This document shows positions 35,924-57,549 of a DNA stretch of 64,000 nt, in pieces. The stretch covers positions 434,001 to 498,000 of the forward strand of contig NZ_CP036425.1 of assembly GCF_007747445.1 (NCBI RefSeq). Direction: 5' to 3'. The translations under genes and the position numbers were made by a program. Within the stretch, counting starts at the first letter, position 1, and the number at the start of each line of letters is the position of its first letter. The notes beneath the pieces were generated by a model that searched no databases, was not told where the DNA came from, and was given only the letters and a program-made list of their open reading frames with translations. Source of the stretch: Poriferisphaera corsica. Its GTDB lineage: Bacteria; Planctomycetota; Phycisphaerae; Phycisphaerales; Phycisphaeraceae.

Positions 35924-35997
35924 CCTTATTGCCCACAACTCCTTTTACTTCCAATTGGCTCTCGTCTAGTGCTTTTGCTATCCTTATTCTGCAATTT

Positions 35998-36023: not shown

Positions 36024-36048
36024 CGACTGTTTGAGAGACACCATAGAA

Positions 36049-36528: not shown

Positions 36529-37209
36529 ATTCTCAATACCAGCAGATGCCGTTCTACCTGCGTGACGACAACCTTGATTGAGCGATCAATATGTATCAGG
36601 CTCTGCCTCATTGATTTCTCATCACTTTTTCATCCGTGTGTCACAAAAGATATGCACCCTAATTGATAATTTTCACCGCGATGTTACGCTTAGTGTTACG
36701 TGTACGCTGCGACATCAGACAGTCAGCCTCTAACCTGACGTCACTTCGCCTGTCCCGTTTCGTTTCAGACTGCTGTCTCAGAGCGATTAACGTCATCATT
36801 GACACGACTTCTTTGTTGGTCGGCTTGACTCAGCCCCCGCTTTTCACGCACATTCTCATTGCCCCGCCCGTGAAGTGAAAGCTCGCCGTTCAACTTACAA
36901 GTATGACGCCTCGCTCGACCGCGTGCTATCCATGTTTGATAGCTGTACGGTCAAGTTGCTTACTTTTACGTTAGCTTTCAAGCGTGAACTCGTTTGCTAC
37001 TCACCCGGTCAACAACTGACCTATTGCAATCAAACATATTTACGCCAAACATTCTGACATCCGCAACTGACCTGAATCAACCCCGCGCTACAATCAACGC
37101 TTGATTGACGCTTTGAGCAGACTGCCACAAATCCAGATCACCTATCATTTGATCTGACGCAAACCGCTCTAAACAACAGCGCATTCACGACTCTTATGGA
37201 GCATTCGCA
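36529..37209. other. 681-bp gap without a recognised gene
   Basis: Small open frames here (60-72 codons) have Cys/Arg/Leu-rich, unnatural compositions and no ribosome binding site. No strong hairpin or repeat copy was seen. It must contain the promoter of the glycosyltransferase gene at 37210. Confidence 0.5.
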
Positions 37210-38673: not shown

Positions 38674-38699
38674 GACGTGTCATAAAACTAAAACTCACC

Positions 38700-38735
38700 C
38701 AACCCGCATACCTTCGCATGCGGGTTGTTCTTTTG
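38700..38735 (+). terminator. Terminator after the glycosyltransferase
   Basis: A 10-bp stem (38700-38709 with 38718-38727), 8-nt loop and TTCTTTT tail. Confidence 0.8.
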
Positions 38736-38783
38736 TATGACACAATATAGACCCCCCAGCTTACGCACATTACCATAGCCCTC

Positions 38784-39338
38784 ATGGATTCACCCGCACC
38801 TAAACCTATCATCATCACAATCGCTCTTCTCCTCATCGTCCTCCTCGCCTACATCCTCTTTGCCGTCGTCCCCGGCCGCCAACTCGGTCCCGGCTCATCC
38901 AACGTCAAAACCGCCATTCAAATCCCCACCGCCCGCTTCAACATCGGCTCCCCATCACAATACAAAGATCCAACCATCTACACCGACTACCTCGATTCCC
39001 GTCAGGTCTACCTCGTTACCAATTCACACAACATGCTCGTTGCCCTCGCTGCACGTTGCCCCAAAGACAACAATCCCATCACCTTTGATCGCGATTCTTA
39101 TCGCTTTGAGTGTCACGCCTGTCGCTCCCGTTTCACTTCCGATGGCCTCCGCCTTCGCCCATACACAGCCCCCACCTCCCTTGCTCGTTTGCAAATCGCC
39201 TACGATCCTGACAACGACACCCTCACCGTCCGTCCCCACCGTTTTTTCTTTCACGAAAATAAAAAACGCGACACCTGGTCAAACCCTCATTCCATGTATC
39301 ACTACATCACCCCCAATATCGCTCCTGTACGCCGCTGA
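38784..39338 (+). CDS. Membrane-anchored protein with degenerate Rieske-like domain
   Basis: 184 residues. One helix at about 11-31 (IIITIALLLIVLLAYILFAV) anchors an outside domain. The middle DSRQVYLVTNSHNMLVALAA, RCPKDN and FECHACRSRFTSDG follow the order of a Rieske iron-sulfur protein: the cofactor loops are normally CTH-type and CPCHGSRF-type. Here the first loop has C-P-K with no His and the second is C-H-A-C, so a standard 2Fe-2S Rieske cluster could not be built the usual way; three Cys and one His remain and could bind zinc. The likeness is by eye. It is a single gene. Confidence 0.6.
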   Translation: MDSPAPKPIIITIALLLIVLLAYILFAVVPGRQLGPGSSNVKTAIQIPTARFNIGSPSQYKDPTIYTDYLDSRQVYLVTNSHNMLVALAARCPKDNNPITFDRDSYRFECHACRSRFTSDGLRLRPYTAPTSLARLQIAYDPDNDTLTVRPHRFFFHENKKRDTWSNPHSMYHYITPNIAPVRR

Positions 39339-39495
39339 AGACCCATTTCAATTTAAACCTCATCGCTTCAAAAAAAACAATCACCATTTCCCCTCATTTT
39401 TCTTTGATCGACTCTTTTTTCACCATATTATTCAAAGTATACACAAGCACATTCTTAAGCATTTTATTTTGACCTTTAACGCAATGTGGTGACCT

Positions 39496-40560
39496 ATGAA
39501 TCAGATGCTTTCCCCTGCTGCTACCCTGTCTAATCATCCACTGTATTCGTCTTCCCAGATTCCTCGCTACATCACACAAACCGAAGCCAATCAACTCGCA
39601 ACCTTCTCTCAGCGAGCCTTCTTCCACATCCCCGTTCCCGCCTCTTTTTCCCTCCCCCGCGCCATCTGCTCCTATGGCTTCTACATTCTCGCGCCCAACC
39701 ATTGGAACCCCATCACCCAAACCTTCACCCGCCCATTCCGCTTCGCGCACAACCGCACCCTCGTCATTCAACTCACACAAAAATCACAAACCACCACCCC
39801 TCGCCTCTGCGTCAAAACCTCTCAGCCCGCAACGCCCCTCGAAATCATTCACATCAAACAGGCGCTTCGGCGAATGCTCCGCCTCAATGAAGACTTCACA
39901 CGCTTCCACAGCCTGCACCCCCTCGCAGCCCGCAAACATTTTGGCCGCCTCCTGCGTTCGCCCTCACTCTTTGAAGATATCATCAAAACGATCACCACCT
40001 GTAATGTCACTTGGCCCAACACCATCCGTATGAACAATCTGCTTGTCCAAAAAATCGGCCGCGGTGACTTCCCTTCTCCCAAACAGCTCGCCGCCGTTAC
40101 AGAATCTGAACTCAAACATCTTTGCAAAGTCGGCTACCGCGCCAAGCGCATCATCAAACTCGCCCGTTGCATCGTCAACGGCTCGCTCAATCTCAGCGAA
40201 CTCGACTCACCCACCCTCACCACCGATCAGCTCTATCCCAAACTTCTCGCCATCCACGGTATAGGCCCTTACGCCGCCTCAAATCTCTGTCAACTCCTCG
40301 CCCATTACGACCGCATCCCCATCGACTCCGAAACCCACCGCCACTTCTGTAAACACCACAACCTCAAACGCCCTACCACCCACAAATCAATCAATCGATT
40401 AGACAAGAAAATACGTAAGCATTACACCCCCTACGCTCCCTACCAATTCCTCGCCTACTGGTTCGACCTCTGGCAAGACTACGAAGATCATCTCGATAAA
40501 CCCGCCCACGATTGGCAACCCCACGAACTCGACGCCTTCACCGCCTCTAACCTCAACTAA
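39496..40560 (+). CDS. HhH-GPD family DNA glycosylase (AlkA-like)
   Basis: 354 residues. The helix-hairpin-helix is LLAIHGIGPYAASNLCQLL (near residue 250), followed by the catalytic Asp in RIPIDSETHRHF. The position where bifunctional family members carry a catalytic Lys is not Lys, which points to a monofunctional base-excision enzyme of the AlkA type. There is no C-terminal iron-sulfur cysteine cluster. The N-terminal 130 residues could be the beta domain of AlkA/OGG1 (FSLPRAICSYGFYILAPNHW). It removes damaged bases, probably alkylated ones. The start is poorly supported by a ribosome binding site. Confidence 0.8.
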   Translation: MNQMLSPAATLSNHPLYSSSQIPRYITQTEANQLATFSQRAFFHIPVPASFSLPRAICSYGFYILAPNHWNPITQTFTRPFRFAHNRTLVIQLTQKSQTTTPRLCVKTSQPATPLEIIHIKQALRRMLRLNEDFTRFHSLHPLAARKHFGRLLRSPSLFEDIIKTITTCNVTWPNTIRMNNLLVQKIGRGDFPSPKQLAAVTESELKHLCKVGYRAKRIIKLARCIVNGSLNLSELDSPTLTTDQLYPKLLAIHGIGPYAASNLCQLLAHYDRIPIDSETHRHFCKHHNLKRPTTHKSINRLDKKIRKHYTPYAPYQFLAYWFDLWQDYEDHLDKPAHDWQPHELDAFTASNLN

Positions 40561-40591
40561 CTTTTAGTTAGATCGCAAGCTCCAATGCCTC

Positions 40592-41407
40592 TTACGCCGC
40601 AACCCGCTCGCTCTTACCTTTAACCGTACAAGCCTGCCCCTTTTTCAGCCTCGCAATCATGCAAGGCCGCATCCCCCTCAATCCCTCAACCTTCCCAATC
40701 AACCGAAGCCATAGCAGCTCCACCAGCATCAGCGGTGGCAACACCGCCAAATGCCCCGACGAGTTGACCATCTCCACCTTTGCAAGTTCCAGTCCCGCCG
40801 CCTCAGCCACTTTTCTTAAATCCTTCTCTCTATTCATGAGATAGTGAGTCTCGTACACGTCCTCACCTTTTCTTCCCAGCAGCACACCCGCCGCCCACGC
40901 AATCATCACTTCCGGCAACAACCGCGCACCCAACGTTGTATACCCCCACTTGTTCGGCGTATGAATCAACACCTCCCCATCCTCACTCAGCACACGCTCC
41001 ACCTCACGCATCAAACCCACCGGATCCTTCACATGCTCCACCACCATATTCAGCGTCACCAGATCCACGCCCCCATCTCCCATCGGCAATCTCTCCGTAA
41101 TATCGCACACCACCTTCTCATTCAATCCCTCATGCCGCCCAATCGAATCCGCATCCAGATCAATCCCCACAACATGCACGTCCTCCAAATCCAACCGATA
41201 CTCATTTTTCTCCGCAACAAATGGCGAGAAAAACGCATGTCCGCACCCCAAATCAATCCACCGCTTAACCTTTCCTTCACCCAATATCCGCTTCAGTTCA
41301 TCCGCATACCCGTACTGACTGTTCAGCAACTCCGGATACAGTAACCGCACCGCTTTCCAGTAAAGCCGATCCGTCAACCGATAATAAGCAGCGCGCAATG
41401 ATCCCAT
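40592..41407 (-). CDS. SAM-dependent methyltransferase (class I)
   Basis: 271 residues. Motif I is KRWIDLGCGHAFFSPFVAEK, motif II ends in VHVVGIDLDADSI, and the motif IV area is VDLVTLNMVVEHVKDPVGLM followed by LSEDGEVLIHTPNKWGY. This is the UbiE/COQ5-like layout of small-molecule methyltransferases. The C-terminal hydrophobic stretch LAVLPPLMLVELLWLRLIG suggests membrane association, for example with a lipid or quinone substrate. It is convergent with the DNA glycosylase gene. Confidence 0.85.
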   Translation of the reverse strand: MGSLRAAYYRLTDRLYWKAVRLLYPELLNSQYGYADELKRILGEGKVKRWIDLGCGHAFFSPFVAEKNEYRLDLEDVHVVGIDLDADSIGRHEGLNEKVVCDITERLPMGDGGVDLVTLNMVVEHVKDPVGLMREVERVLSEDGEVLIHTPNKWGYTTLGARLLPEVMIAWAAGVLLGRKGEDVYETHYLMNREKDLRKVAEAAGLELAKVEMVNSSGHLAVLPPLMLVELLWLRLIGKVEGLRGMRPCMIARLKKGQACTVKGKSERVAA

Positions 41408-41514
41408 AAAAGCTTCTGACCTTTCACCTCATTCATCGACACATCATTCACGCCAAAACCACGCCCGCCCTTATCGGACACCCTTAATAGAGAAGATGAT
41501 TCATCGTGTCTTAT

Positions 41515-41559
41515 CAAGCCCATGACCGCCGGTCATGGGGTGTTTTACAAATCAGCATC
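41515..41559 (+). repeat. Dispersed hairpin repeat, copy C
   Basis: CAAGCCC, stem ATGACC/GGTCAT, GGGGTGTT, ACAAATCA. It is part of the four-copy family and lies between two minus-strand genes. Confidence 0.75.
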
Positions 41560-41673
41560 AGTTGCTTGCAACTCAAGTCACCGCAGGCTAACAGCTTGCC
41601 GGTCTTTATTTAGCCGTACACTTCTCTTCGCCTCACTTGCGTTTTCTATCGCACTCGCATGAACAACTAGTAC

Positions 41674-42612
41674 TCACTCCCCTCGCTGCCGCATCGCTTC
41701 ATACATCAAGACCGCTGCCGCGTTTGACGCATTCAACGAATCCACAATGCCCGACTTATTCGGGATCACCACCCTTTGTCCTCCATACTTATCCGCAGCT
41801 TCTAACCACATATTAGATAAGCCTCGATCCTCTGGCCCGATCACGATCGCAATCCCCCCACCCCCCCCAATTCCCTCGGCTCCTCGATTCCCGCGATCAG
41901 CCTCCAACCCCTTCCCATAATCTGCTTCGCGATAGTCCACCGCTCCCGCCGGCGTTGCCGCCAAAATCCGAACACGATTCTCAACCAACCACGCAATCAC
42001 CTCTTCCTCATCCGCGCTAACCGTTGGCAAATCAAACACCGCCGCCGTACTCGTCCGAATCGCATTCGGATGTAACACATCCACCGGATACCCTGCTGTA
42101 TTCGCCGCAATCACTGCATCAACACCCGCTGCCGCAGCAGTCCGCACCATCGCCCCAACATTCCCCGGCTTCTCCATCTGGACACAAACCAAATACACGC
42201 CCCCCTCCGTTGGCACTTCACCATCAACCGCACCACTAACCAATTTATCTAATCCCCAGTTAGGTGCTTCGAATATCGCCAGCAGGCCCTCCGGCCCATC
42301 CACATAACTTACCTTTTCCATCACTTCTCGATTCACCCCAAACAGCTTCACCCCATCCTCCCTACCCATCACGCGTGATAGAATCTCATCAACGCCAGCT
42401 TTCACCGCATCATCCTTACCCACCATCGTTTCGCACACATATATCTCGCGCATCACCAACCCCGCCATCACAGCGCGGCTGACCTCTCTCACCCCCTCAG
42501 CTAACACCACGCCCGCCGCACGACGCTTCCGCCCATTACGTAACCTCACCAATTCCTTAACCCGAGGATTTGTTCTGCTTGTGATCTCGATCATCTTCAT
42601 TTCGTGACTCAT
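41674..42612 (-). CDS. TrmH/SpoU-family RNA 2'-O-methyltransferase
   Basis: 312 residues from ATG 42612; downstream ATGs at 42600 and 42594 are alternatives. N-terminal substrate-binding part: RTNPRVKELVRLRNGRKRRA and VLAEGVREVSRAVMAGL. SPOUT domain: motif 1 EKPGNVGAMVRTAAAAG, motif 2 IAIVIGPEDRGLS, motif 3 IPNKSGIVDSLNASNAAAVL. These form the knotted SAM site. It methylates ribose in rRNA or tRNA. There is a Gly-rich loop (GIGGGGG) just before motif 2. The top strand is C-rich here although the gene is on the minus strand. Confidence 0.9.
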   Translation of the reverse strand: MSHEMKMIEITSRTNPRVKELVRLRNGRKRRAAGVVLAEGVREVSRAVMAGLVMREIYVCETMVGKDDAVKAGVDEILSRVMGREDGVKLFGVNREVMEKVSYVDGPEGLLAIFEAPNWGLDKLVSGAVDGEVPTEGGVYLVCVQMEKPGNVGAMVRTAAAAGVDAVIAANTAGYPVDVLHPNAIRTSTAAVFDLPTVSADEEEVIAWLVENRVRILAATPAGAVDYREADYGKGLEADRGNRGAEGIGGGGGIAIVIGPEDRGLSNMWLEAADKYGGQRVVIPNKSGIVDSLNASNAAAVLMYEAMRQRGE

Positions 42613-43184
42613 AGGTTGGCTCACCCGCTTCTTATTTGATCGTGCTTCCCAAAGTTTCGTTGATAGCTGGTTTCTGAGGGAACGATACTTCACACATCCC
42701 CCCGTAGGCAAGCGTGAGCGAATCTTTCAGGTGCACGGGAAACCGAGTTTACACAACCCTTCCACATCTTCCCAAACGTGCGCGCAAATCGATCGTTAGC
42801 ACACAAAGTTCATCAGTTTTGAGCCAAAACTTCGTCTTTAATCACTATTTTGAAGCATTCTTTGCCGTTTTGAGGTATTTTCTCAATTTTGAGAAAAATA
42901 CATTAACCCCAATACCCCTAGATGCTTGCCGCTTTTCCACAGCGTGTTTGTGCGCAAAACAGCAAAATCAATACGCGCGTTTGGGCGCACAAAACCGCCG
43001 TGAAATCCAACAGCATTGCCTATTTATAATGCAAAACCAAGCGCTTTCTGAGTCATCACACAAAATCTTCAGCATGCTCTGGCATGATGCTTGCGCACAA
43101 AAAAACGCGGCAGCTGATCGTTTTCAGACTGCCGCGAATATATTCAATCCACCAATGTTCGTCCTGCAACCCGCTCGAAAGCAT
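42613..43184. other. 572-bp gap with short repeats and a DnaA-box-like site
   Basis: TTTTGAG/A occurs at 42817, 42848, 42868 and 42887. GCGCA(C)AAA-type words occur near 42781, 42951, 42985 and 43093. TTTTCCACA at 42933 differs from the DnaA box TTATCCACA at one position. A 9-bp inverted repeat is at 42878-42897. A 181-codon open frame covers the area but has no recognisable domain and runs into the next gene. Confidence 0.45.
43098..43136 (-). terminator. Terminator of the SnoaL-like gene
   Basis: An 8-bp stem (43106-43113 with 43129-43136) plus an inner 4-bp stem, followed by seven Us on the minus strand. Confidence 0.8.
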
Positions 43185-43601
43185 CTACGAACAAGACTCA
43201 ACCATCATCTTATGCATCAATGCAGGATCAACATAAGCTCTCACTTTGAAAACTTTTAGATCGTCATCAAACTCCATCACCCAGCAATAAGTATTGCTCA
43301 TGGTCTTGTGCTTAAAATCCGTCGGCAACGATACCATCTCAACCACTGCAACATTCTCATCCAGATAAACACGTTCGACATGCAGCATCGCACCATCTTT
43401 AACATCTTTATTTACAGGTACGTACGCGCCACTGCGAAAAACCTTCTTTCCCTTGTAAGTCCCCGCAAATGCGTGCGAACCCATAATCGTCCATTCCACA
43501 TCGTCATGGACGTTCTCAAAGAACGCGTCAAAATCTGCATTCTCGATATGCTTAAACATCTGTTTTATAAGATCTTCTGTCAGTGTCATCTTTGTTGCCA
43601 T
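43185..43601 (-). CDS. SnoaL/NTF2-like small protein
   Basis: 138 residues from ATG 43601, where the sequence becomes family-like (TKMTLTEDLIKQMFKHIENA). FDAFFENVHDDVEWTIMGSH, followed by FAGTYKGKKVFRSG, is the opening pattern of the SnoaL/nuclear-transport-factor-2 fold, a cone-shaped ligand-binding or isomerase domain. Upstream codons to 43718 have a different look and are probably not translated. Substrate is unknown. It has its own terminator. Confidence 0.75.
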   Translation of the reverse strand: MATKMTLTEDLIKQMFKHIENADFDAFFENVHDDVEWTIMGSHAFAGTYKGKKVFRSGAYVPVNKDVKDGAMLHVERVYLDENVAVVEMVSLPTDFKHKTMSNTYCWVMEFDDDLKVFKVRAYVDPALMHKMMVESCS

Positions 43602-44121
43602 TTCAATGAAATCCGATCTGCAAGCATGCACCGCAATTGGAATTACCAATGGGTTCATGAACCGTAAAAACTTATAAATCAATGATTTAACACCAGAGGT
43701 AGCAGCCCGGCTGCTCATATCGCGTGGTAAATCGATGCTAACACAGACGGATACATCAAATCAATACAAATACTAGGCAAGCTTTCTGCAGGAGTTGGGC
43801 TTGAAGCTGAAAAAAAATAATCTACTTAACTTAATGCCCATAAATAACTTAAGTTCATTGAACCCGAATCTTTACGCGGGAGCCAATTTTATTTTCGTCT
43901 ACAAGCAATTCGGATGGTATAAATGTTTCTATAAGGATACATTTGAATATTCCGTATCCTCGCCGTGAATGTCACGACAAGATACAGAACTGGCGGTCTG
44001 GCGGACAGGTAAGTAGGCAAATAATCTTCTTACTCATTCAATGACAGTTGTTTGTATACAATAGTCACCAAACGAAATGTCCGTTGATCGAGCCGCAGCT
44101 ATACGATAATCGAGGTTTTCA
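43602..44121. other. 520-bp gap upstream of the alpha-mannosidase
   Basis: AT-rich, with no gene seen. A 6-bp hairpin AGCAGC-CCG-GCTGCT lies near 43702-43716. It must hold the divergent promoters. Confidence 0.5.
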
Positions 44122-47073
44122 ATGACACGACGTGCGCACTATGTCATTAGTACACACTGGGATCGTGAGTGGTATCAGCCATTCCAAGACTACCGTTTTC
44201 GCCTTGTCGAAATGCTCGACCAAGTGCTTGACGGTATCGAGTCCGGCCGCATGGTTGGTCCCTTCCAAACCGACGGACAAGCCATCATGCTCGAGGATTA
44301 TCTCGAAGTTCGGCCCGAAAAACGCGCACAAATCCAACAATTCGCAAGAGAAGGCAAACTCATCATCGGCCCGTGGTACGTTCTACCAGACGAGTTCCTC
44401 GTCAGCGGCGAATCACTCGTTCGCAATATCCGAAAAGGTCGAGCGCTAGCACGCGCGTTCGGCGGTGTGCCGGGCAGCGCCGGTTTTGTCTGCGATCTGT
44501 TCGGACATAACAGCCAGATCCCACAGATATTTAAAAACGGTTTTGGTATCAAAGCCGGCATGCTTTGGCGCGGGAACAATGATATTGATGTGCGGTTATT
44601 GAACTGGGTTGGCGCGGATGGGACGAAGTGGCCGTGCTATCGCTTTGGGTTTGATGGGTATTGCGGGTACGCGATGCATGTACGTCAAGCGCATCGACAT
44701 GATGTGGCTTTTGATGCGGATCAGGCTCGCGAGGATATCCGTAAGTTCATCGTTGATGAGGTGTTGCATACGAATCGGATCGGTGAGCCGGCGGTTGACT
44801 GCGCCCCTGCGGGCTGCAATATGGCGGTGGGCGCGAACGTTGCGAAGGCAGGACGTGAGGGATCGCCGTTGTTGGTTTTTGATGGCGGAGATCATCAGGG
44901 ATGGGATGAACAATTTTACGAAATACTACGAGATGAATGGTTTGGTCGTGTGGTGCGTGTGCCGTTAGGTGAGGGTGATCGTGTTGGAGATGAGGGACAG
45001 AGCGGGGGGAATGAGGCGGTTGAGTTGGTGCATAGTTCGCTGGATGCATATGTGGCGGATTTGGTGAATGCGGTGGGTGAGAATGGTGAATTTATTGATC
45101 GGGAAGTTGTGGGTGAGCAGCGTGAGCCGGGGCTGCATGCGATAGGTGAGGATACGCAATGGCATATTCCGGGGACGCTGAGTAGTCGGGTTTGGATCAA
45201 GCAGTGGAATGCGCAATGTCAGGCGCTGTTGACCCAGTGGGCGGAGCCTTTAGGTGTGTTTGGTGAGGCGGCGATTGGCCGCGAATATCCGAAGGGGTTT
45301 TTGGATGTTGCGTGGGAGTGGTTGTTAAAGAATCATCCGCATGATTCGATTTGCGGTTGCAGTGTTGATCGTGTGCATGAGGATATGAAGTTCAGGTTTA
45401 GTCAGTGCGAGCAGATTGGGGAGCGGCTGAGCATGGAGACGATGCGGGCGGTGACGAGTTTTGTTGCGGGTGAGGTTGATGATGGAGAGTTAAGGTTTGG
45501 TGTGTTCAATGGTTTGCCAAGGGCGTTGGATGAGACGGTGGAGCTGGAGTTGGATATCCCAGTGGACAGTGAATTTTATCAGTGTCACGCGGCTATCTTG
45601 AGGGAGCCGATTTTCCATGTGATTGATGGGGAAGGTCTTGAGGTGCCGGTGCAAAAATTGGGGATGAAGCTGAACCAGAGCCGGTTGAAGATCAAGAGCG
45701 TGAAGCTGGCGAGTTCGGAAAATGTGCACCGTTTGAAGGTTTCGATGCCGGTGAAGATTGGGGGGTATGGGTATGCGGCGTATACGGTGAAGAAGGGAAC
45801 TAAAGAAGGGCATGAACGGATGGGGATGGGGTTAGGTAGTGCGGATCATAACTGGCGGGCTGGGATGATGACGAGCGATCGGAGTATGTCTAATGGATTG
45901 ATAGAGGTTAGTGCGAATGGGGGAGGTTCGCTTCGGGTGAAGGATTTGGAGAGTGGTGAGGTTTACGACCGGTTGCTGACGTTTGAGGATGGTGCGGATC
46001 GTGGTGATGGTTGGTATCACGGGCCGAGCGTGAATGATGAAATATATAGTAGTGTGGGGAGTGGGGGGAATCAGGTGAGTGTTGTGGCGGACGGGCCACA
46101 TGTTGGAACGCTGCGGATGCGGACGGTGATGCGAGTTCCGAAGTGTTATATCAAGGGCGATATGGAATGCCGCAGTGAGGAGATGGTTGAACAGGTGATG
46201 GATAGTTATGTGACGATTCGTCCGGGGAAAAAGCGGATTGAGGTTGAGACGGTTGTGAAAAACGAGGCGAAGGATCATCGGGTCAGGGTGCTTTTACCGA
46301 GCGGCGCGAAGGGTGCGGAGACCTATCTTGCGGATAGTCAGTACGATGTGATTGAGCGTAAGATTGCGTTACGTGCGGATAATCATTTGTATCGCGAGCC
46401 TGAGCTTGAGACGAAGCCGATGGTTGGCTGGGCTGGGGTTGCGAATGGTAAGCGGGGGTTGGTTGTGCTGAGTGAGGGGTTGATGGAGTGTGCGGTGCAG
46501 GATAATGAGGAGCGCGTGGTGGCGTTGACGCTTTTTAGGGGAACGGAGCAAACGGTGATGACTGATGGCGAGCCGCGAGGACAGTTGCTCGGCAAGCTGC
46601 GGTTTAAGTACTGGGTTGAGTTTGTGGGTGAGGGTGAGATCAACCGTGAAGCGATGTGCTATCTGAGTCAGCAGTTGTTGGCGGGTGGTGAGAAGGGGAT
46701 TGGTTGTGTGCGATCAGCACATCTGGGGCTGGAGGATGTTGCGTTTTATCGTGGACGTGATGCGGGGCGGCGGGCGGATTTGCCGTGGCGTAGTGATTGG
46801 CTGGAAGCTGAGGGCGCGGTGGTGAGTGCGGTCGAGAAGCGTCAGGTTCAGGGGCGTGATGGTTTGGAAATTCGCATGTTTAATCCGCAGGATGAGAAGT
46901 CGTGTGCGAGGTTGAAGTTGAACCGAGATTGGATTGATTTCAACGATGCGGTGCTGGTGGATATGGAGGGGAATGAGGTTGAGGGTGCGATTAAGGTGGA
47001 GGATAAGGATCAGGTTGTGGTGATGTTGGGGGCGAAGGGGATTGTGACAGTGAGGCTCATCCTTCCCCTCTGA
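44122..47073 (+). CDS. Glycoside hydrolase family 38 alpha-mannosidase
   Basis: 983 residues, typical of bacterial GH38 enzymes. The zinc-binding start is ISTHWDREWYQ (His12, Asp14). The nucleophile region is FVCDLFGHNSQIPQI (Asp125, His129), and WLLKNHPHDSICGCSVDRVH carries a further zinc-ligand His-Asp. The C-terminal half is the beta-sandwich region with VETVVKNEAKDHRVRVLLP. It cleaves alpha-mannosidic bonds, probably in the cytoplasm as no signal peptide is present. Codons for residues 1-152 are balanced to C-ended; from residue 153 (44581) on they are strongly G/T-ended. The C-terminus is followed by C-tracts across the stop codon. Confidence 0.92.
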   Translation: MTRRAHYVISTHWDREWYQPFQDYRFRLVEMLDQVLDGIESGRMVGPFQTDGQAIMLEDYLEVRPEKRAQIQQFAREGKLIIGPWYVLPDEFLVSGESLVRNIRKGRALARAFGGVPGSAGFVCDLFGHNSQIPQIFKNGFGIKAGMLWRGNNDIDVRLLNWVGADGTKWPCYRFGFDGYCGYAMHVRQAHRHDVAFDADQAREDIRKFIVDEVLHTNRIGEPAVDCAPAGCNMAVGANVAKAGREGSPLLVFDGGDHQGWDEQFYEILRDEWFGRVVRVPLGEGDRVGDEGQSGGNEAVELVHSSLDAYVADLVNAVGENGEFIDREVVGEQREPGLHAIGEDTQWHIPGTLSSRVWIKQWNAQCQALLTQWAEPLGVFGEAAIGREYPKGFLDVAWEWLLKNHPHDSICGCSVDRVHEDMKFRFSQCEQIGERLSMETMRAVTSFVAGEVDDGELRFGVFNGLPRALDETVELELDIPVDSEFYQCHAAILREPIFHVIDGEGLEVPVQKLGMKLNQSRLKIKSVKLASSENVHRLKVSMPVKIGGYGYAAYTVKKGTKEGHERMGMGLGSADHNWRAGMMTSDRSMSNGLIEVSANGGGSLRVKDLESGEVYDRLLTFEDGADRGDGWYHGPSVNDEIYSSVGSGGNQVSVVADGPHVGTLRMRTVMRVPKCYIKGDMECRSEEMVEQVMDSYVTIRPGKKRIEVETVVKNEAKDHRVRVLLPSGAKGAETYLADSQYDVIERKIALRADNHLYREPELETKPMVGWAGVANGKRGLVVLSEGLMECAVQDNEERVVALTLFRGTEQTVMTDGEPRGQLLGKLRFKYWVEFVGEGEINREAMCYLSQQLLAGGEKGIGCVRSAHLGLEDVAFYRGRDAGRRADLPWRSDWLEAEGAVVSAVEKRQVQGRDGLEIRMFNPQDEKSCARLKLNRDWIDFNDAVLVDMEGNEVEGAIKVEDKDQVVVMLGAKGIVTVRLILPL

Positions 47074-47100
47074 TCCCCCCCTGATCCCCCCTGGTTCCCC
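47065..47100 (-). repeat. C-tracts with G-quadruplex potential on the minus strand
   Basis: Runs of 4, 7, 6 and 4 C at 47065, 47075, 47086 and 47097 straddle the stop codon of the mannosidase gene. Confidence 0.6.
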
Positions 47101-47233
47101 ACTAAAAAATCCCTTTCGGTAGTTACGCCTAAGAAAGTGGCTGCCGGAAGGTTTGGGAAGCATGTGCTTTGCACGTTTGAAGGGAAATGGAGGGGGTGAT
47201 TTTTGCAGGCTATTGAATTGATGAGTTGTTAGA

Positions 47234-47262
47234 CACCCCACGACCGGCGGTCGTGGGCTTGG
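47234..47262 (-). repeat. Dispersed hairpin repeat, copy D
   Basis: On the minus strand: CAAGCCC, stem ACGACC/GGTCGT, GGGGTGTC, then AACAACTCA. It is part of the four-copy family. Confidence 0.75.
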
Positions 47263-47368
47263 TGGTATTGCGGAAAGTTTGTTGAATAACGAATGTGATA
47301 TGAGCGGGGGGTCTGGTGATCGGTGAAGGAGGGAGGTGGTGGTACAGGGGAAGTGTGGGTGTGGAATT

Positions 47369-47398
47369 GGGGCAGGGGGAACAGGGGGGGGGAGGGGG
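47369..47398 (+). repeat. G-tract cluster with G-quadruplex potential
   Basis: Four runs of at least four G (4, 5, 9 and 5) within 30 nt, separated by 1-4 nt. Confidence 0.65.
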
Positions 47399-47580
47399 CA
47401 ATCTGCGAGAAAAGAGGGGACATGGTGGTGGAAATGATGATAATGAGGTGAAACAAAGGGGCAGGCGATACGTCTATTTATTAGAGGTGGGCGAGGGGAG
47501 AATGAGGGGGTGGAAATGAGGTGGGTGGGCGTGGATCGAGAATCTTGTAGATAGCCTGTTAAAGATAAGCGAGCTGAGCG

Positions 47581-49509
47581 ATGGAACAGAATGGTGGCAA
47601 GGTTTCGGAGGTTGTGCGGGGTGTTCAGCAGCGGCTGCGGATGATCGCGGTGGGGCGGATGAGCTATCGGGTGTGGCTGTGGGTGTTTGGTGCGATTATG
47701 GTGTTGATCGGGGTGAGCAAGATCACGGGGTGGGGGAGTGGGTATGTGAATTGGTGGATGGGCGGGGGGTTGGCTGTGGGCGGTGGGTTGCTGGCGGTGA
47801 TTTTGGGTGGTGTTTTACACCGGCGTGTGGATGAGCGACGGAGTGCGCGGGCGATTGATGCGCATATGGGGACGAAGGATTTGTTTTTGACGGCAAGTGA
47901 GATGGGAGAGGATGAGCGGAAGGTTTTTGAGTTTAGTGGTTTGGTGGTGAGGGATGCGGAGATGAGTGCGGGGGAGGTGCGGGTTGGTGAGGTGGTGAAA
48001 TGGGACCCGTGGTCGAAGATGGGGCGCGCGGGAGCGATGGGGTGTTTGATTTTGGGGATGGTGGCTTTTTTGCCGGAGCTGGATCTGTCGGGCGAGCAGG
48101 CGGTGGCTGAGAAAGCTGAGGCGGTGAAGAAAGAAATCGCGGTGGAGGTGAAGAAGGCGGAGAAGCGTGAGAAGGCTTTGGGGGAGAAGAAGTTGGATCA
48201 GGAGCTGAGTGATGAGACGTTGGCGAAGTTGGACGCGCTTCGTTTTGATTTGGAGGGGATGAAGCCAAAGGATCGGGCGGGGAACCGGCAGAAGTTGGCG
48301 AAGCACCAGGCGGAGCTAAGTGAGGCGTGGCAGGAAATTAAGAAGGCGAATTTGAAGTCGCTGCGGAGTGGTGGGTCGCGGATGGGCGGGCAGATGAATA
48401 AAGAGATGGCGGCGATGTTGAAGAAGCTGGATGCAGGTGATGCGGGGGATTTGGAGGCGGAGCTTGGGAAGATGGCGCAGATGGCGAAAGATATTCAGCA
48501 GACGAGCGATCCGATTGAGCAGGCTGAGAAGAAGGAAGCATTGAAGAAGAAGATCAAGCAGATGAGCTTGGTCATGAAGCGGAGCGGGAACAATACGGCA
48601 CCAGTGGCGAAGGCGCTGCAGAATGCGCTGAATCATGTGAATCAGTCGAACAAGGCGGGGATGAATCAGCAGGCGATGAAGGCGGCGCAGAAGCAGTTGC
48701 AATTGAGCCAGCGAGAAATGCAGCTCTTGCAGCAGCGGATGAATGATATGGCGGCGATGAAGATGGCGATGAAGACGGCGCAGGCGGCGCAGCAGCTCAA
48801 TCAGCAGCAGGGCGGTTTGAATGCGCAGCAGATGAAACAGGGGGCGAAGGGTGGCCAGGGGCAGCAGCAAGGACAACAGGGTAGCAAGCAAGGGGGGCAG
48901 GGTCAGAAGCAAGGGCAGGGCCAAAAACAGGGGCAGCAAGGCGGGAAGCAGAGTGGGCAAGGACAAGGGCAAGGCCAACAGGCCGGTGCGGGTCAGGGAC
49001 AGAATGGGCAGGGGAGTGGTCAAGGTGCGGGGCAGATGGGGAGTAGTCGAACGATTCGGCCTGATCAGAAAAATGGGGGTGAGGGTGGTGGGAGTGTGTT
49101 GGCGCTACAGGCGTATCAGCAGTGGTATCATCAACAGCTGAAGTTTTCGAACTGTAAGAGTTGTAGTGGGACGGGGTGTTCGGTGTGTCGCGGGCCGTTG
49201 AAGGCGGGGAATGGGGGGATGGGTGGGCCGGGGCGTGGGCGCGGAGGTTTGGCGCCGGAGAATAATGCGATGAAGACAGGGTGGAAGAAGGAGATGGATG
49301 TGTCGCAGTTTGTGAAGGGTCGGATTTTGCATAGTGAGAAGACGGATGAGGATGCACCGGTGGGTGAGGTGATCAAGGCGTACCGGCCGAAGGCGGGCGA
49401 GGTGATGCAGGATGTGAGTGAAGCGATTAAGCGGCAGGAGATTCCGCCGGGGTATGAGGAGGCGATCAAGGGGTATTTTGAAGATATGAAGGATGAGGGG
49501 GAAGAGTAA
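47581..49509 (+). CDS. Coiled-coil, Gln/Gly-rich membrane protein (DUF4175-like layout)
   Basis: 642 residues. Helices at about 31-47 and 58-79 (VWLWVFGAIMVLIGV, GGGLAVGGGLLAVILGGVLH) and a third near 145-162. Long charged, probably coiled-coil segments follow (AEKAEAVKKEIAVEVKKAEK onward), then a Gln-rich stretch and about 70 residues of GQ/KQ repeats. Near residue 525 a CKSCSGTGCSVC motif (C-x2-C-x4-C-x2-C, like a DnaJ zinc repeat) precedes a conserved-looking end. The helix-helix-coil-GQ-rich order resembles DUF4175 proteins, which sit next to MoxR/VWA operons in other bacteria, and this gene starts such a run. No function can be assigned. Confidence 0.75.
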   Translation: MEQNGGKVSEVVRGVQQRLRMIAVGRMSYRVWLWVFGAIMVLIGVSKITGWGSGYVNWWMGGGLAVGGGLLAVILGGVLHRRVDERRSARAIDAHMGTKDLFLTASEMGEDERKVFEFSGLVVRDAEMSAGEVRVGEVVKWDPWSKMGRAGAMGCLILGMVAFLPELDLSGEQAVAEKAEAVKKEIAVEVKKAEKREKALGEKKLDQELSDETLAKLDALRFDLEGMKPKDRAGNRQKLAKHQAELSEAWQEIKKANLKSLRSGGSRMGGQMNKEMAAMLKKLDAGDAGDLEAELGKMAQMAKDIQQTSDPIEQAEKKEALKKKIKQMSLVMKRSGNNTAPVAKALQNALNHVNQSNKAGMNQQAMKAAQKQLQLSQREMQLLQQRMNDMAAMKMAMKTAQAAQQLNQQQGGLNAQQMKQGAKGGQGQQQGQQGSKQGGQGQKQGQGQKQGQQGGKQSGQGQGQGQQAGAGQGQNGQGSGQGAGQMGSSRTIRPDQKNGGEGGGSVLALQAYQQWYHQQLKFSNCKSCSGTGCSVCRGPLKAGNGGMGGPGRGRGGLAPENNAMKTGWKKEMDVSQFVKGRILHSEKTDEDAPVGEVIKAYRPKAGEVMQDVSEAIKRQEIPPGYEEAIKGYFEDMKDEGEE

Positions 49510-49636
49510 TCGGTGTATGCAGGCGAGGGGGGAGTGGGGGGGAGAGATTGGATTATGGTGTGAGGTGTGTTTTCGTCTAACTGTTTGTTAGTGTTGGGTA
49601 TCGTTCTGAGGGTTTTAATGCGAAGGAAGTTGATTG

Positions 49637-50770
49637 ATGAAATTGTTAATAGTGATGCTGGGCTTGGTGATGGGTGTCGTGTGCGGGGCTGTGAGCGGTT
49701 GTGATGGGGGGAGCGTCAAGGGGAAGGGCGGGAAAGAGGTGGTGGTGTATTGCGCGCATGATTCTGTGTATGCGGATGCGGTGCTGCGGAAGTTTGAGGC
49801 AGAGACAGGGATTAAGGTGAAGGTGAAGTATGACACGGAGGCGACGAAGTCGTTGGGTTTGACGGAGTTGTTGATTGCGGAAAAGGATCGCCCAAAGGCC
49901 GATGTGTTTTGGAATAATCAGTTGTTGGGGACGGCAGATCTTGCATCTAACGGTGTATTAGAAGGTTATCAAGGTGAGGGTTGGGAACGGATGCCGGAGG
50001 GGCTGAAGGATAAGGACGGGTTGTATACGGGGTTTGCGGGGCGGTTGCGGGTTGTGATTTATAATACGGATCGGTTTCCAGAGGGGATACACGATAAGAC
50101 GATGTGGGATTTGTCGATTGGGGATTGGCCAGAGCGCGGGGCGATTGCGAAGCCGCTGTATGGGACGACGTTGAGCCATTATGCGGTGATGTGGGACTTG
50201 ATGGGGGAGGCAGGTGTGAGGTTGTGGCATGAAGATTGGCGGGAACGGGGGATTGTTGAGAAAGGTGGGAACTCGACGGTGAAGAATCTGGTGGCGAATG
50301 GTGTGTGCGACTGGGGTTACACGGATACGGATGATTTTTATGTGGGGAAGGATAATGGGAAGCCGGTGGGGATGAGTCCGGCTTGGGTGGTTAGTAACGA
50401 GACGGATTATCAGGATACGTATGCGAAGATGGTTAATGGGAAGGACAGATTTGATTCGCCGCAGCCTGCGGTTGGAGCGACGCGTTGGACGATTTGTATT
50501 CCGAATACGGTGGGCTTGATTAAAGGTGCGAAGAACGATGCGAATGCGAAGTTGTTGATTGATTATTTGTTGAGTGAAGAAGTGGAGTTGATGTTGGCGA
50601 ATTCAAAAGCGAGGCAGATTCCTTTGGGGGATGTGGATGAATCGAAGCTGAGCGATGAGGTGAAGCAGTTGAAGGAATGGGCGAAGGATGCTTACCCGAT
50701 TGCAGGGTTGTTGGAGGAAAGGAATGCGGCATTGAGATGGTTGAAGGGGAAGTATTTGGGTGAAGATTAA
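49637..50770 (+). CDS. Iron-type ABC transporter substrate-binding lipoprotein
   Basis: 377 residues from ATG 49637 (AAGGAAG upstream). Lipoprotein signal: hydrophobic LLIVMLGLVMGVVCGAV, then the lipobox SGC with Cys near residue 22. Mature part: VVVYCAHDSVYADAVLRKFE, GIKVKVKYDTEATKSLGL and ADVFWNNQLLGTADLASNGV, which is the ferric-ion binding-protein pattern (FbpA/FutA class). It delivers a ligand, most likely Fe(III), to the permease encoded next. The binding tyrosines were not assigned. The permease begins 53 nt downstream. Confidence 0.85.
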   Translation: MKLLIVMLGLVMGVVCGAVSGCDGGSVKGKGGKEVVVYCAHDSVYADAVLRKFEAETGIKVKVKYDTEATKSLGLTELLIAEKDRPKADVFWNNQLLGTADLASNGVLEGYQGEGWERMPEGLKDKDGLYTGFAGRLRVVIYNTDRFPEGIHDKTMWDLSIGDWPERGAIAKPLYGTTLSHYAVMWDLMGEAGVRLWHEDWRERGIVEKGGNSTVKNLVANGVCDWGYTDTDDFYVGKDNGKPVGMSPAWVVSNETDYQDTYAKMVNGKDRFDSPQPAVGATRWTICIPNTVGLIKGAKNDANAKLLIDYLLSEEVELMLANSKARQIPLGDVDESKLSDEVKQLKEWAKDAYPIAGLLEERNAALRWLKGKYLGED

Positions 50771-50823
50771 TAATGAGTTTTATAGATTTATGATCAAATT
50801 GATGAATCGGAGATATTGAAGGC

Positions 50824-52398
50824 GTGAGTTTTTGGCAGGTGATGATGTTGAGTGCGGGGAGAGCGGTTGTGATTGGCCTGCTGGGTGTTTTAGTGGGTGT
50901 TGGTGTTGCGTATATGTTGGGATGGGTATTGTCTGCTCGTCAAAAGGGTGGGAAAAAAATTGGGTTTGTTCAGTGGTGTGTGATGGGGATTGGGTTGGTC
51001 GTTGTTGCTGGGCCGATGGGGCTGCCAAGCTTGGTGGTGGGGTATGCGTGGGGTGATAGTGGTGTGGCGAGTGAGTTGGGAAACGTGTTGGGGTTGCCTA
51101 TGGGTAAGTGGTTTGTAAAACAGGCGTGGTTGGCGGAGTTGTTGTATGGGGTGTTGTTGTTGGGGAGGTATGGCGTGGTGAGCGGGTTTGTGATGCGGTA
51201 TGGGCCAAGCGGTGGTCATGATGGCGAGGGGGTATGGTGGGCGAAGCGTGTGGGAGGAGTGAAAGGGTTTTGGATGGGGTGTCAGGGGTGGATTGGGAGC
51301 GCGTTGATTGCGTTTTGTGGTGTGTTTTTGCTGGTGTTTGGCGAGTTTGAAATTGCGAGTTTGATGGGGCGGCCGACATGGTCGGTGTGGTTGTTTGACG
51401 CGCAGGTGGGGGGATTGGATGTGGGACGGGCGATGTTGAATGTGGTGTGGCCGATGGGGTTGCAGGTGCTGGTTGTGGGTGGTTGTGCGGTGTGGTATTT
51501 GCGGCGTGAAGGGCGGATCGGTGTGAATGATCGATGGGGATTACGTGATGAGGATCGGTGTGTAAGCTGGAAACTCTTGGCTGGGGCGGGATGGTGTTTG
51601 TTTGCGTTTTTAATGGTGGTGGGGTTGCCGATGTGGTATTTGATGAGCGAGGGTGTTGCAGGTGTAAGGGGTGTGATCGATGCAGGGATGTTTGAAGATG
51701 ATTTGTGGTATAGCGGGGTGTATGCATTAATTGGGACGATGGGGGTTGGTGTGATATTGATCGCAATGTGGTGGGTGATGAGACGCGTGAAATGGATGAG
51801 CAGGGGCGGTGCGGATGTGGTGATTGGTGGGGTGGCGGCCATGGGATTATGTGGTGGGTTGATTGTGGGAATGGTGTTGGTGAGCTTTCGGCAATGGTTT
51901 GAAGGGCTGACTGGGAATGACTTTTTTAGTGATGTCGTTGTTGGTGAATGGTTATTAATTGGGATGGGGTTGATGGTAGTGCTATTACCAATGGGTTGGG
52001 TGCTTGGGTTGCTTGCGCGGGCGAAGCGTGAGAGGCAATCGATATATGTTGCAAAGATGATGTGGGGAGGTGGAGTGGATCGGTATATAAGGTGGCGAGG
52101 GTTTGGGATTTGGTGGCGGAAGTATGGTCGGGTTTGGTATTGGGTTGGCGCGTATGTGTTTTTTCAGGGATTTTTTGAGTTGAGTGCGAGTGCGGTGTTG
52201 TATCCGGCGGGGGGTACGCCGGCGGGAGTGCGGATGTACAATCTGATGCATTACGGACAGAGCCAAGTATTGAGTGGGATGGTTTTGTTGAGTTTACTGG
52301 CGTGCGGTGGTGTGGTTTTGATTGGAAACGTTGTGGTGGGGGTTGCTGTGAAGTGTGGTGGTCGATTTTGGTTTCAATGGGCGGGGATGAGAGGATGA
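50824..52398 (+). CDS. ABC transporter permease (FbpB-like, fused double permease)
   Basis: 524 residues from GTG 50824. About 12 membrane helices in two halves, as in ferric-ion permeases. Landmarks: GLLGVLVGVGVAYMLGWVL, VVAGPMGLPSLVVGYAWGD, ALIAFCGVFLLVFGEFEIAS, ASAVLYPAGGTPAGVRMYNL. The classical EAA loops were not clearly identified. The ATPase gene overlaps its stop (ATGA). Its sequence is unusually G-rich, which biases composition toward Gly, Val and Trp. Confidence 0.82.
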   Translation: MSFWQVMMLSAGRAVVIGLLGVLVGVGVAYMLGWVLSARQKGGKKIGFVQWCVMGIGLVVVAGPMGLPSLVVGYAWGDSGVASELGNVLGLPMGKWFVKQAWLAELLYGVLLLGRYGVVSGFVMRYGPSGGHDGEGVWWAKRVGGVKGFWMGCQGWIGSALIAFCGVFLLVFGEFEIASLMGRPTWSVWLFDAQVGGLDVGRAMLNVVWPMGLQVLVVGGCAVWYLRREGRIGVNDRWGLRDEDRCVSWKLLAGAGWCLFAFLMVVGLPMWYLMSEGVAGVRGVIDAGMFEDDLWYSGVYALIGTMGVGVILIAMWWVMRRVKWMSRGGADVVIGGVAAMGLCGGLIVGMVLVSFRQWFEGLTGNDFFSDVVVGEWLLIGMGLMVVLLPMGWVLGLLARAKRERQSIYVAKMMWGGGVDRYIRWRGFGIWWRKYGRVWYWVGAYVFFQGFFELSASAVLYPAGGTPAGVRMYNLMHYGQSQVLSGMVLLSLLACGGVVLIGNVVVGVAVKCGGRFWFQWAGMRG

Positions 52399-53429
52399 GT
52401 ATGCGGGCTGAAGTGAAGACATTGTGGCGGTTTGAGGATGGGTGGAAAGGGAAGGGAGAAGGTGCGCGATTGAAGGGGGTGAGTTGTGAGATTAAAGAGG
52501 GGGTGACGGCGGTGGTGGGGTGTTCAGGTGCGGGGAAGAGTTCGCTTTTAAATGTGATGGTTGGGTTTGATAAGTTGGATAGGGGAAAGGTTTTTTGTAG
52601 TGAGAAGTGTATTGGTTGGGTGCCACAGGATGGTGGGTTGTGGCGCGGAATGACGGTGGAAGGGCATGTTAAGGCGGTGCTATGTCAGAGTGGCGAGGTG
52701 TTTTGTCCGGGTGGTGCTGAGGATGTGGTTCGAGTCGAAAAGATTGGGTGGGATGAGGTGGTGAGGCGTTGGTTGGTTGTATTTGGATTGGAAGGTTTGG
52801 AGAAGCGTGTGGTTGGCCGATTGTCGGGTGGAGAGCGGGCGCGATTGAGTGTTGTGCGTGCGCTGGTGATGTGTAGTGGTGTGGATGGAGTGGGGGGGAC
52901 GGTGGTGATGGATGAGCCGATGGTTTCGGTAGGGCGAGGGGATGCGCGGCGGTACTGGGAAGTGATACGGCGGTGGCGAGTGGTGACGGGTGGAAATGTG
53001 GTTTTTTCGACGCATTTTCCGGAATTGGTGATACGGGAAGCGGACAGCATCGTCTGTATGGATGAAGGGGAGGTTGTTTTTGAGGGTGCGTTGGAGGCGT
53101 TGTATGAGCGGCCTGCGAGTGAGAGATTGGGCGCGTTTTTGGGTGAGTTGAATTGGTTTGAAGTCGGGGAACATGAGGGGGTTATTGGGGGGGTGAGGCC
53201 GGAGCAGCTGATGGTCGAGGTTGCTGAAGATTCTGGGTTTGGGGTTGTCGTCGGGAGTGAGCGATTGGGTGTGATCGTGGAGACTGTGGTGCGGTTAGAT
53301 CATGGGGCTATGAAAAGGTTATTGCATGTGGGGGATGTTATGAAGCAAGGGGACCGGGTTGAGGTGAATGTGATGAGACGTTCAAGAAGAACTAATCGAG
53401 CATTAGATTATTGCGATGATAGAAAATGA
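52395..53429 (+). CDS. ABC transporter ATP-binding protein with atypical D-loop
   Basis: 344 residues from ATG 52395, which overlaps the permease stop (ATGA) with GAGAGG just before it. Walker A GCSGAGKSSLLN, Q-loop VPQDGGLW, signature LSGGERARLSVVRAL, Walker B GTVVMDEPM and His-loop FSTHFPEL are present. After DEP the usual L-x-x-L-D D-loop is replaced by MVSVGRGDARR. The C-terminal 70 residues may form a TOBE-like part (GGVRPEQLMVEVAE). It drives the upstream permease; the three genes form a complete importer. Confidence 0.87.
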   Translation: MSMRAEVKTLWRFEDGWKGKGEGARLKGVSCEIKEGVTAVVGCSGAGKSSLLNVMVGFDKLDRGKVFCSEKCIGWVPQDGGLWRGMTVEGHVKAVLCQSGEVFCPGGAEDVVRVEKIGWDEVVRRWLVVFGLEGLEKRVVGRLSGGERARLSVVRALVMCSGVDGVGGTVVMDEPMVSVGRGDARRYWEVIRRWRVVTGGNVVFSTHFPELVIREADSIVCMDEGEVVFEGALEALYERPASERLGAFLGELNWFEVGEHEGVIGGVRPEQLMVEVAEDSGFGVVVGSERLGVIVETVVRLDHGAMKRLLHVGDVMKQGDRVEVNVMRRSRRTNRALDYCDDRK

Positions 53430-53478
53430 TGTTGTTTGCGAGATATATGTTTTAAATTTTGAATAATGAATTTTTGAA

Positions 53479-54549: not shown

Positions 54550-54550
54550 C

Positions 54551-57544: not shown

Positions 57545-57549
57545 TAAAA

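What the first reader, a model, noticed from the sequence alone, without database searches (positions are those of the whole stretch)
44541..44640. Abrupt switch of strand composition inside the intact alpha-mannosidase gene
Upstream genes (30.4-44.57 kb) have a C-rich top strand in both orientations; downstream genes (to about 58 kb) have a G-rich top strand. By hand count, 44281-44340 has 12 G and 18 C, and 44581-44640 has 24 G and 8 C. The change falls near codon 153 of a gene that stays in frame. A simple inversion would have broken the gene. A replication switch point (negative to positive skew, origin-like), a strand-specific mutation boundary or a recombined chimeric gene are possible.
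Basis: partly seen in the sequence, partly recalled or inferred. Interest (0 to 1): 0.62.

Follow-up and report, generated by a model that had tools for sequence, protein, structure and literature searches.

The report
Bacterial chromosome with ~110 origin-like switches
The strand switch is one tooth of a sawtooth that repeats about every 40 kb in the sequenced parts of this marine bacterium's chromosome, and most teeth start at a short conserved DNA element, which suggests many dispersed sites where DNA copying can start, in a group of organisms thought to use one.

Summary
The switch is real: change point 44,538, G/(G+C) 0.31 to 0.77. It is not a local oddity. The window lies in the 4,291,168-bp chromosome of Poriferisphaera corsica KS4 (Phycisphaerae). 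The 1.88 Mb read contiguously is a sawtooth of GC skew: 48 abrupt minus-to-plus jumps, mean spacing 37-40 kb, each followed by a gradual fall. Fourfold-site skew reaches about 0.8 in genes of either orientation. The congener ZRK32 has the same pattern; 7 of 9 assessable jumps, this one included, sit at orthologous places.

An intergenic element marks most jumps: boxes (T/C)G(T/C)GCGCACAAA, often about 147 bp apart. In held-out contiguous sequence 18 of 18 box clusters lie within 2.4 kb of a jump; 18 of 25 jumps have one. In the window it is at 42,780-43,101.

Best reading: dispersed secondary replication-initiation sites superposed on ordinary oriC replication. Initiation itself is inferred. 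Against routine use: genes do not point away from elements, DnaA boxes are not enriched there, an ordinary two-arm skew persists. Chimera and inversion are rejected. My searches found no published report.

The parts
43500..44563 (.). Zone in which GC skew goes from minus through about zero to plus; change point 44,538
42780..43101 (.). Box-bearing intergenic element about 1.4-1.7 kb left of the switch (six boxes, three exact)
   Evidence: orthologous element in ZRK32 between the same two neighbour genes
42947..42955 (-). Exact box GCGCACAAA
42985..42993 (+). Exact box GCGCACAAA
43093..43101 (+). Exact box GCGCACAAA, 146 bp from the box at 42947
   Evidence: spacing peak 145-149 bp
42933..42941 (+). 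TTTTCCACA, a DnaA-box-like word, also present in the ZRK32 element; not enriched at held-out elements in general
44324..44332 (+). Fourth exact box, inside the mannosidase gene
44122..47073 (+). Intact GH38-type alpha-mannosidase gene (983 aa) that the switch crosses
30364..30364 (.). Place where cumulative skew peaks: end of the tooth that began at G000 428,000, i.e. the presumed meeting zone
1..44450 (.). Most of one tooth (it begins about 6 kb left of the window): skew falls from about +0.5 to about -0.5
44563..64000 (.). First half of the next tooth (next jump at G000 515,600, outside the window)

Best explanation
SHOWN: in the sampled chromosome of P. corsica, and of ZRK32, GC skew makes an N-shaped tooth about every 30-40 kb. 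Each abrupt minus-to-plus jump is usually marked within about 2.5 kb by an intergenic element made of several GCGCACAAA boxes. On the strand that runs 5'-3' away from the jump, G reaches 0.53-0.59 and C falls to 0.07-0.08 at fourfold sites whatever the gene orientation; this fades to near parity beyond 25 kb, and G+C at these sites fades with it. INFERRED: the elements are dispersed bidirectional replication-initiation sites. A box-binding initiator (my candidate is the second, full-length DnaA paralogue with a changed recognition helix) opens DNA at or beside the element; two forks leave in opposite directions; each outward (leading) strand accumulates G by replication-linked mutation; forks from neighbouring elements meet about midway. 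They fire in addition to, not instead of, ordinary replication from an oriC in the dnaA region, which leaves the smaller two-arm skew (about +0.1 and -0.08) and the gene-orientation bias. Firing may be inefficient, limited to a life stage, or recent relative to gene order.
For: Sawtooth: 34 up-jumps against 12 down-steps with 5-kb windows and 35 against 6 with 3-kb windows in 1.438 Mb; 19 of 20 spread samples reach skew of 0.29 or more in some 2-kb window. Element found from 36 jumps: 19 of 36 have the exact 9-mer within 1 kb, against 1.6% of 607 background windows. HELD OUT: G000 3.40-3.84 Mb, 9 of 9 clusters within 2.4 kb of a jump and 21 of 26 exact boxes within 2.5 kb where 13.6% is expected; ZRK32 0.4 Mb, 9 of 9 clusters within 2.2 kb and 25 of 30 boxes where 16% is expected. 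Whole genome: 254 boxes against 38 for the reversed word. 89% of exact boxes within 2.8 kb of a jump are intergenic, where 17% of the sequence is. Box spacing peaks at 145-149 bp, 24 pairs against a mean of 3 per 5-bp bin. Second motif TTTCTNACC in 4 of 9 and 4 of 9 held-out elements against 2.8% and 2.5% of other intergenic windows. Jump spacing is regular: CV 0.42, 0.21, 0.30 against 0.76, 0.68, 0.64 for random placement. Jumps kept in synteny with ZRK32. A two-neighbour competition shape, tanh((dr-dl)/2tau) with tau 8-10 kb, has the best cross-validated R2 in all three sets: 0.778, 0.837, 0.720. Orientation-independent fourfold skew. An island of about 70 kb nearly lacks the skew, as expected if it is imprinted slowly.
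Against: No replication data: initiation is inferred from composition. Genes are not oriented away from elements: 50.6%, 50.7% and 53.9% of gene bp are outward in the three sets, while 58%, 54% and 60% follow the ordinary arm. Per-tooth mean skew keeps the arm's sign: +0.096 over 35 teeth, -0.081 over 11, -0.072 over 12. DnaA boxes are not enriched in held-out elements, 1 of 9 and 1 of 9. No box cluster at 11 of 36, 3 of 12 and 4 of 13 jumps, nor at the jumps of the single 20-kb samples L012, L015 and L016. Elements often lie about 1 kb off the jump rather than at it. Rival shapes fit nearly as well: linear phase 0.768, 0.833, 0.714. Gain of G from A, T and C with rising G+C is not the classical deamination spectrum. 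Boxes and sawtooth do not always go together: G011 has a strong skew switch in the 40 kb read but no box enrichment. The DnaA2-box link is a guess: DnaA2 is widespread in relatives that are not box-rich.
Confidence: 0.55

Rival explanations
1. The elements are recombination or repair hotspots: a protein nicks or breaks DNA at the boxes, and repair synthesis or strand exchange runs outward for up to about 20 kb with a strand-asymmetric, G+C-raising bias.
For: G+C at fourfold sites rises toward the jump and G is gained from A, T and C, as biased gene conversion could do; ordinary arm skew and gene bias persist; gene order does not follow elements.
Against: Regular spacing and conservation in synteny are not expected of fast-turning hotspots; near-jump amplitude does not shrink in short intervals, as competition rather than addition of two local sources predicts; no nuclease was looked for.
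Confidence: 0.2
2. The elements are chromosome-organising sites (loop anchors, segregation or supercoiling-domain borders), and the mutation asymmetry is a by-product of how polymerases or translocases run between anchors.
For: Regular spacing of 30-40 kb, intergenic palindromic boxes, synteny.
Against: Such sites are not known to me to cause strand-composition switches; the size and sharpness of the switch need strand-specific exposure or synthesis (inference).
Confidence: 0.1
3. Pervasive outward transcription from each element makes the outward strand the non-template strand and skews it.
For: The sign (non-template strand G-rich) would fit.
Against: Genes transcribed inward have the same or slightly stronger outward-strand skew than genes transcribed outward, so ordinary transcription leaves little trace; 20-kb read-through against opposing genes would be needed.
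Confidence: 0.05
4. Selection for oriented G-rich signals (as for DNA translocases) rather than mutation.
For: Polarity is consistent relative to elements.
Against: All eight fourfold boxes and all four next-base contexts are skewed in both orientations; a newly arrived island is not.
Confidence: 0.04
5. Ordinary: an inverted, shuffled or chimeric two-arm chromosome, or an assembly artefact.
For: Multiple polarity changes can come from rearrangement (warning in PMC3269012, passages).
Against: Inversions give sharp downs as often as sharp ups; here 35 against 6 with 3-kb windows. Two independent genomes agree at orthologous places and elements mark the jumps.
Confidence: 0.01

Closest known systems
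Skew N-domains of the human genome (PMC3320577, passages read)
   Same: Abrupt upward skew jumps bordering stretches of gradual decline with a sign change midway; read there as inversion of fork polarity at origins.
   Different: Human domains are megabase-sized and cover 29.2% of the genome; here about 40 kb, in a bacterium, with a box-bearing element at most jumps. No timing or polarity data here.
Bacterial oriC with two-replichore GC skew
   Same: Minus-to-plus switch with the outward strand G-rich; an ordinary two-arm component is present here too.
   Different: About 110 switches (extrapolated) instead of one; boxes are GCGCACAAA, with no enrichment of DnaA boxes in held-out elements; not beside dnaA as a rule.
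Skew-based proposals of several origins in bacteria (Xia 2012, PMC3269012, passages; Gao 2015, PMC4403523, passages)
   Same: Several skew polarity changes on one bacterial chromosome read as several origins.
   Different: The passages that I read describe two origins (Gao) or several polarity changes in a few AT-rich genomes (Xia), without a shared element at each; here dozens, regular, with an element tested on held-out sequence.
Initiation away from oriC in E. coli lacking RNase HI (PMC7174701, passages)
   Same: Additional initiation sites in a bacterium; 10 of the 13 family genomes searched have only a weak RNase_H match and 2 none.
   Different: There a mutant state; the same RNase H situation occurs in G007, which shows little skew in the 60 kb read.

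Membership tests
Skew N-domain (replication domain bordered by origins) | Abrupt upward jumps, gradual decline between them | tested here: met
   with 8-kb windows 35 up and 25 down, as a gradual decline predicts
Skew N-domain (replication domain bordered by origins) | Independent of gene orientation | tested here: met
Skew N-domain (replication domain bordered by origins) | Borders replicate early; fork polarity reverses there | not testable with these tools
   needs sequencing of growing cultures
DnaA-type bacterial origin (oriC) | Skew switches from minus to plus | tested here: met
DnaA-type bacterial origin (oriC) | Cluster of DnaA boxes (TTWTNCACA; consensus recalled) | tested here: not met
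   7 of 25 in the discovery set but 1 of 9 and 1 of 9 held out, against 6-8% of other intergenic windows
DnaA-type bacterial origin (oriC) | Beside dnaA | tested here: not met
   two dnaA genes but dozens of elements; the nearest jumps lie about 6.4 and 4.7 kb from them
DnaA-type bacterial origin (oriC) | Autonomous replication | not testable with these tools
   plasmid assay needed
Ordinary two-replichore chromosome | Opposite mean skew and gene bias on the two arms | tested here: met
   (two regions, one on each side of dnaA)
Ordinary two-replichore chromosome | One up-switch only | tested here: not met
Dispersed mobile repeat | Copies alike over their length | tested here: inconclusive
   In P. 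corsica the printed elements share boxes and no long likeness was seen by eye, but no all-against-all search was run; in G039 the boxes lie in repeats of a few hundred bp, mostly 75-96% identical in the aligned pieces

The most novel reading that the evidence does not exclude
Poriferisphaera (and some relatives) replicate, at least part of the time, from on the order of a hundred evenly spaced chromosomal origins, each specified by a new box element and probably read by a second DnaA: a eukaryote-like multi-origin programme in a bacterium, written into base composition at fourfold-site skews of about 0.8.
Probability: 0.5. Interest if true: 0.97.

Novelty: categorically new. Interest (0 to 1): 0.88.

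Why it matters
[quoted passage not shown] A cultured marine planctomycete with a dense, regular array of origin-like switches would be an exception that can be tested directly by sequencing growing cultures. It would also offer a bacterial model of multi-origin replication, a new initiator-box system and an extreme strand asymmetry of mutation. Even if the elements prove to be recombination or organising sites, a sequence-marked, regular polarity switch of mutation across a bacterial chromosome would need explaining. Practically, it can mislead skew-based origin finders and gene callers.

Tried and rejected
Chimeric gene: rejected. Inversion or assembly artefact: rejected (two independent genomes). 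Locality from the 111-kb gap at 1.22-1.33 Mb: at first read as evidence that the process reaches only about 20 kb; dropped once ten proteins there looked to me like a prophage and defence island (by eye, no library search). DnaA boxes at elements: suggestive in discovery data, null in held-out data; dropped. RNase HI loss as cause: family-wide, does not match sawtooth. Second DNA polymerase III alpha: one match each in G000 and G001. Rfam: no match at gathering threshold in the window or in four G039 loci. Element orientation against side of jump: confounded with local skew; not used. Box-binding protein: not identified.

Counts and drops: jump calls depend on window and threshold (34 with 5 kb, 36 with 4 kb). 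Searches used the 34, later calls the 36. One search left out intervals under 12 or over 62 kb (33 of 35, 11 of 11 and 12 of 12 kept). Gene calls are from my own ORF picker, not a trained caller. The tree used 27 of 30 DnaA rows; extraction failed for three. The '7 of 9' synteny count is my reading of the table: six within about 3 kb, one about 5 kb, two absent; four of the 13 ZRK32 jumps were not assessable with the G000 sequence held. The chance figure of 1e-8 to 1e-7 in the full report is my arithmetic from the rates.
Full report
WHAT WAS CHECKED. In 100-bp windows there is a near-zero stretch from about 43.5 to 44.5 kb, so the centre may lie nearer 44.0 kb, in the divergent gap 43,719-44,121. 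The gene across it is an intact GH38-type alpha-mannosidase.

WHERE IT IS. The window is G000:C1:434001-498000 of a 4,291,168-bp contig. PMC10945688 (passages) gives that size for Poriferisphaera corsica KS4 and 5,234,020 bp for ZRK32, which equals the contig length of G001 and of CP066225. So I take the window to be P. corsica and G001 its congener ZRK32.

A SAWTOOTH. Twenty 20-kb samples spread over G000 show declines from plus to minus and sudden minus-to-plus rises; 19 of 20 reach a skew of 0.29 or more in some 2-kb window, the one at 2.1 Mb does not. I then read 1.438 Mb contiguously: 34 upward jumps with 5-kb windows (mean spacing 42.4 kb, median 40.3) against 12 downward steps; with 3-kb windows 35 against 6; with 8-kb windows 35 against 25, as a sharp rise and a slow fall predict. 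With 4-kb windows there are 36. A further contiguous 0.44 Mb on the other side of dnaA has 12, and 0.4 Mb of ZRK32 has 13. Extrapolating 48 jumps in 1.88 Mb gives about 110 in the chromosome (inference). Mean spacing is 39.9, 36.7 and 30.6 kb, and more regular than random placement with the same 8-kb exclusion: CV 0.42/0.21/0.30 against 0.76/0.68/0.64.

IT LOOKS MUTATIONAL. At fourfold sites 4-6 kb from a jump the outward 5'-3' strand has G 0.53-0.59 and C 0.07-0.08; beyond 25 kb G 0.25-0.27 and C 0.20-0.24. All eight fourfold boxes show it in both orientations: skew +0.38 to +0.86 when the coding strand is the outward strand, -0.59 to -0.86 when it is not. Intergenic DNA shows it more weakly, up to about 0.42. 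G is gained from A, T and C, and G+C rises toward the jump (from 0.47-0.49 to 0.61-0.66), so cytosine deamination alone is not enough. A stretch of about 70 kb (1.24-1.31 Mb), in which I recognised prophage and defence genes by eye, has almost no skew; the skew seems to need time to build.

AN ELEMENT MARKS THE JUMPS. Counting words within 1 kb of 36 jumps gave GCGCACAAA in 19 of 36 against 1.6% of 607 background windows. All 25 box clusters in 1.44 Mb lie within 2.5 kb of a jump, and 25 of 36 jumps have one; this is circular, so I tested elsewhere. Held-out G000: 9 of 9 clusters within 2.4 kb of a jump, 9 of 12 jumps with a cluster, 21 of 26 exact boxes within 2.5 kb where 13.6% is expected. 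ZRK32: 9 of 9, 9 of 13, and 25 of 30 where 16% is expected. By my arithmetic 9 of 9 at those rates has a chance of about 1e-8 to 1e-7 if sites were independent. In the 11 single 20-kb samples the picture is more mixed: clusters in L017, L018, L019 and L021, all near a rise, but none at the jumps of L012, L015 and L016 (L012 and L015 have one exact box within 2 kb). The whole G000 has 254 boxes against 38 for the reversed word. The profile is (T/C)G(T/C)GCGCACAAA, sometimes palindromic, with a spacing peak at 145-149 bp. Spacers carry TTTCTNACC words in 4 of 9 and 4 of 9 held-out elements. 89% of exact boxes near jumps are intergenic. The window's element is at 42,780-43,101; the ZRK32 element at the orthologous place sits between the same two neighbour genes and both hold boxes and a TTTTCCACA word.

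CONSERVATION AND SPREAD. There are 169 reciprocal best pairs (median identity 68%). Among the 140 with identity over 45% and within 25 kb of a jump in both species, 76% keep the sign of the gene-oriented distance; correlation 0.27, largest of 2000 permutations 0.25. By my reading 7 of 9 assessable ZRK32 jumps have a P. corsica counterpart, the window's among them, inside a segment inverted between the species; two have none. In the family the word TGCGCACAAA is strongly enriched in G000 (114 against 7 reversed), G001 (136 against 8), G039 (101 against 2), G050 (32 against 0) and G038 (25 against 0) of 51 genomes, moderately in some others (e.g. G028 22 against 5, G043 19 against 4, G005 13 against 1), and not in many. 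The palindrome TTGTGCGCACAA occurs in 46 of 298 class genomes, most often in G329 (18) and G000 (16). In the stretches read, G004, G007, G008 and G018 show little skew; G011, G005 and G012 show more, G011 without box enrichment. So boxes and sawtooth do not go together everywhere.

HOW IT MAY WORK. The shape is that of human skew N-domains, read as fork-polarity profiles between origins (PMC3320577, passages). A two-neighbour competition function fits best in all three sets (cross-validated R2 0.778, 0.837, 0.720), though a linear phase is close (0.768, 0.833, 0.714). Yet gene orientation follows the ordinary arms (58% plus on one side of dnaA, 46% plus on the other) and not the elements (50.6-53.9% outward), and teeth keep their arm's mean sign (+0.096; -0.081). 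So I propose secondary initiation sites superposed on oriC replication: inefficient, stage-specific or recent. The genome has two DnaA proteins with ATPase and helix-turn-helix domains; the second belongs to a separate, fully supported clade (27 of 30 rows) and has GRKTHSTV where DnaA1 has GGRDHTTV. The box keeps the CACA core of the DnaA box (recalled), so DnaA2 is my candidate reader; this is a guess, since DnaA2 is widespread in relatives that are not box-rich.

LITERATURE. Ten searches of an open-access library listed nothing that I recognised as reporting this; I saw listings and starts of abstracts, and two searches named Poriferisphaera. In the KS4 description 'skew' and 'replication' do not occur in the main text. 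In the ZRK32 paper 'skew' has 0 occurrences in the main text, one in the wider record (listing). Skew-based multi-origin proposals in bacteria exist (PMC3269012; PMC4403523; passages). SkewDB notes one Salmonella chromosome whose peaks might be multiple origins, inversions or assembly problems (PMC8941118, passages). Subscription papers and preprints were not searched, so prior notice is possible.

CERTAINTY. Sawtooth and element: very high. Vertical conservation: high. Mutational, replication-like cause: likely. True origins: about even odds.

Noticed in passing
G000:C1:1240000-1312000 (L182-L184 and L011): Island with prophage-like (terminase, tape measure), helicase/methyltransferase defence-like and metal-efflux-like genes that nearly lacks the sawtooth; recognised by eye from ten translations.
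   Followed up: partly
L251-L279 (odd numbers, G039): In another genus of the family the boxes lie about 113 bp apart inside repeats of a few hundred bp, many near contig ends: perhaps an element still spreading.
   Followed up: partly
family f1 genomes: A strong RNase HI match is seen in the 8 genomes of other families and in G002, but only a weak RNase_H match in 10 genomes of this family and none in G003 and G004.
   Followed up: no
L002:1018-2577: Second full-length DnaA paralogue, widespread in the order, with a changed recognition helix.
   Followed up: partly
window 13396-19335 (-): Very long open frame of 1979 aa, not annotated here.
   Followed up: no
window 39496-40560 (+): HhH-GPD base-excision glycosylase gene inside the C-rich flank of the switch.
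   Followed up: no
P. corsica KS4: Its description reports division by budding, unusual in its class (PMC7783415, passages); any link to an unusual replication programme is untested.
   Followed up: no
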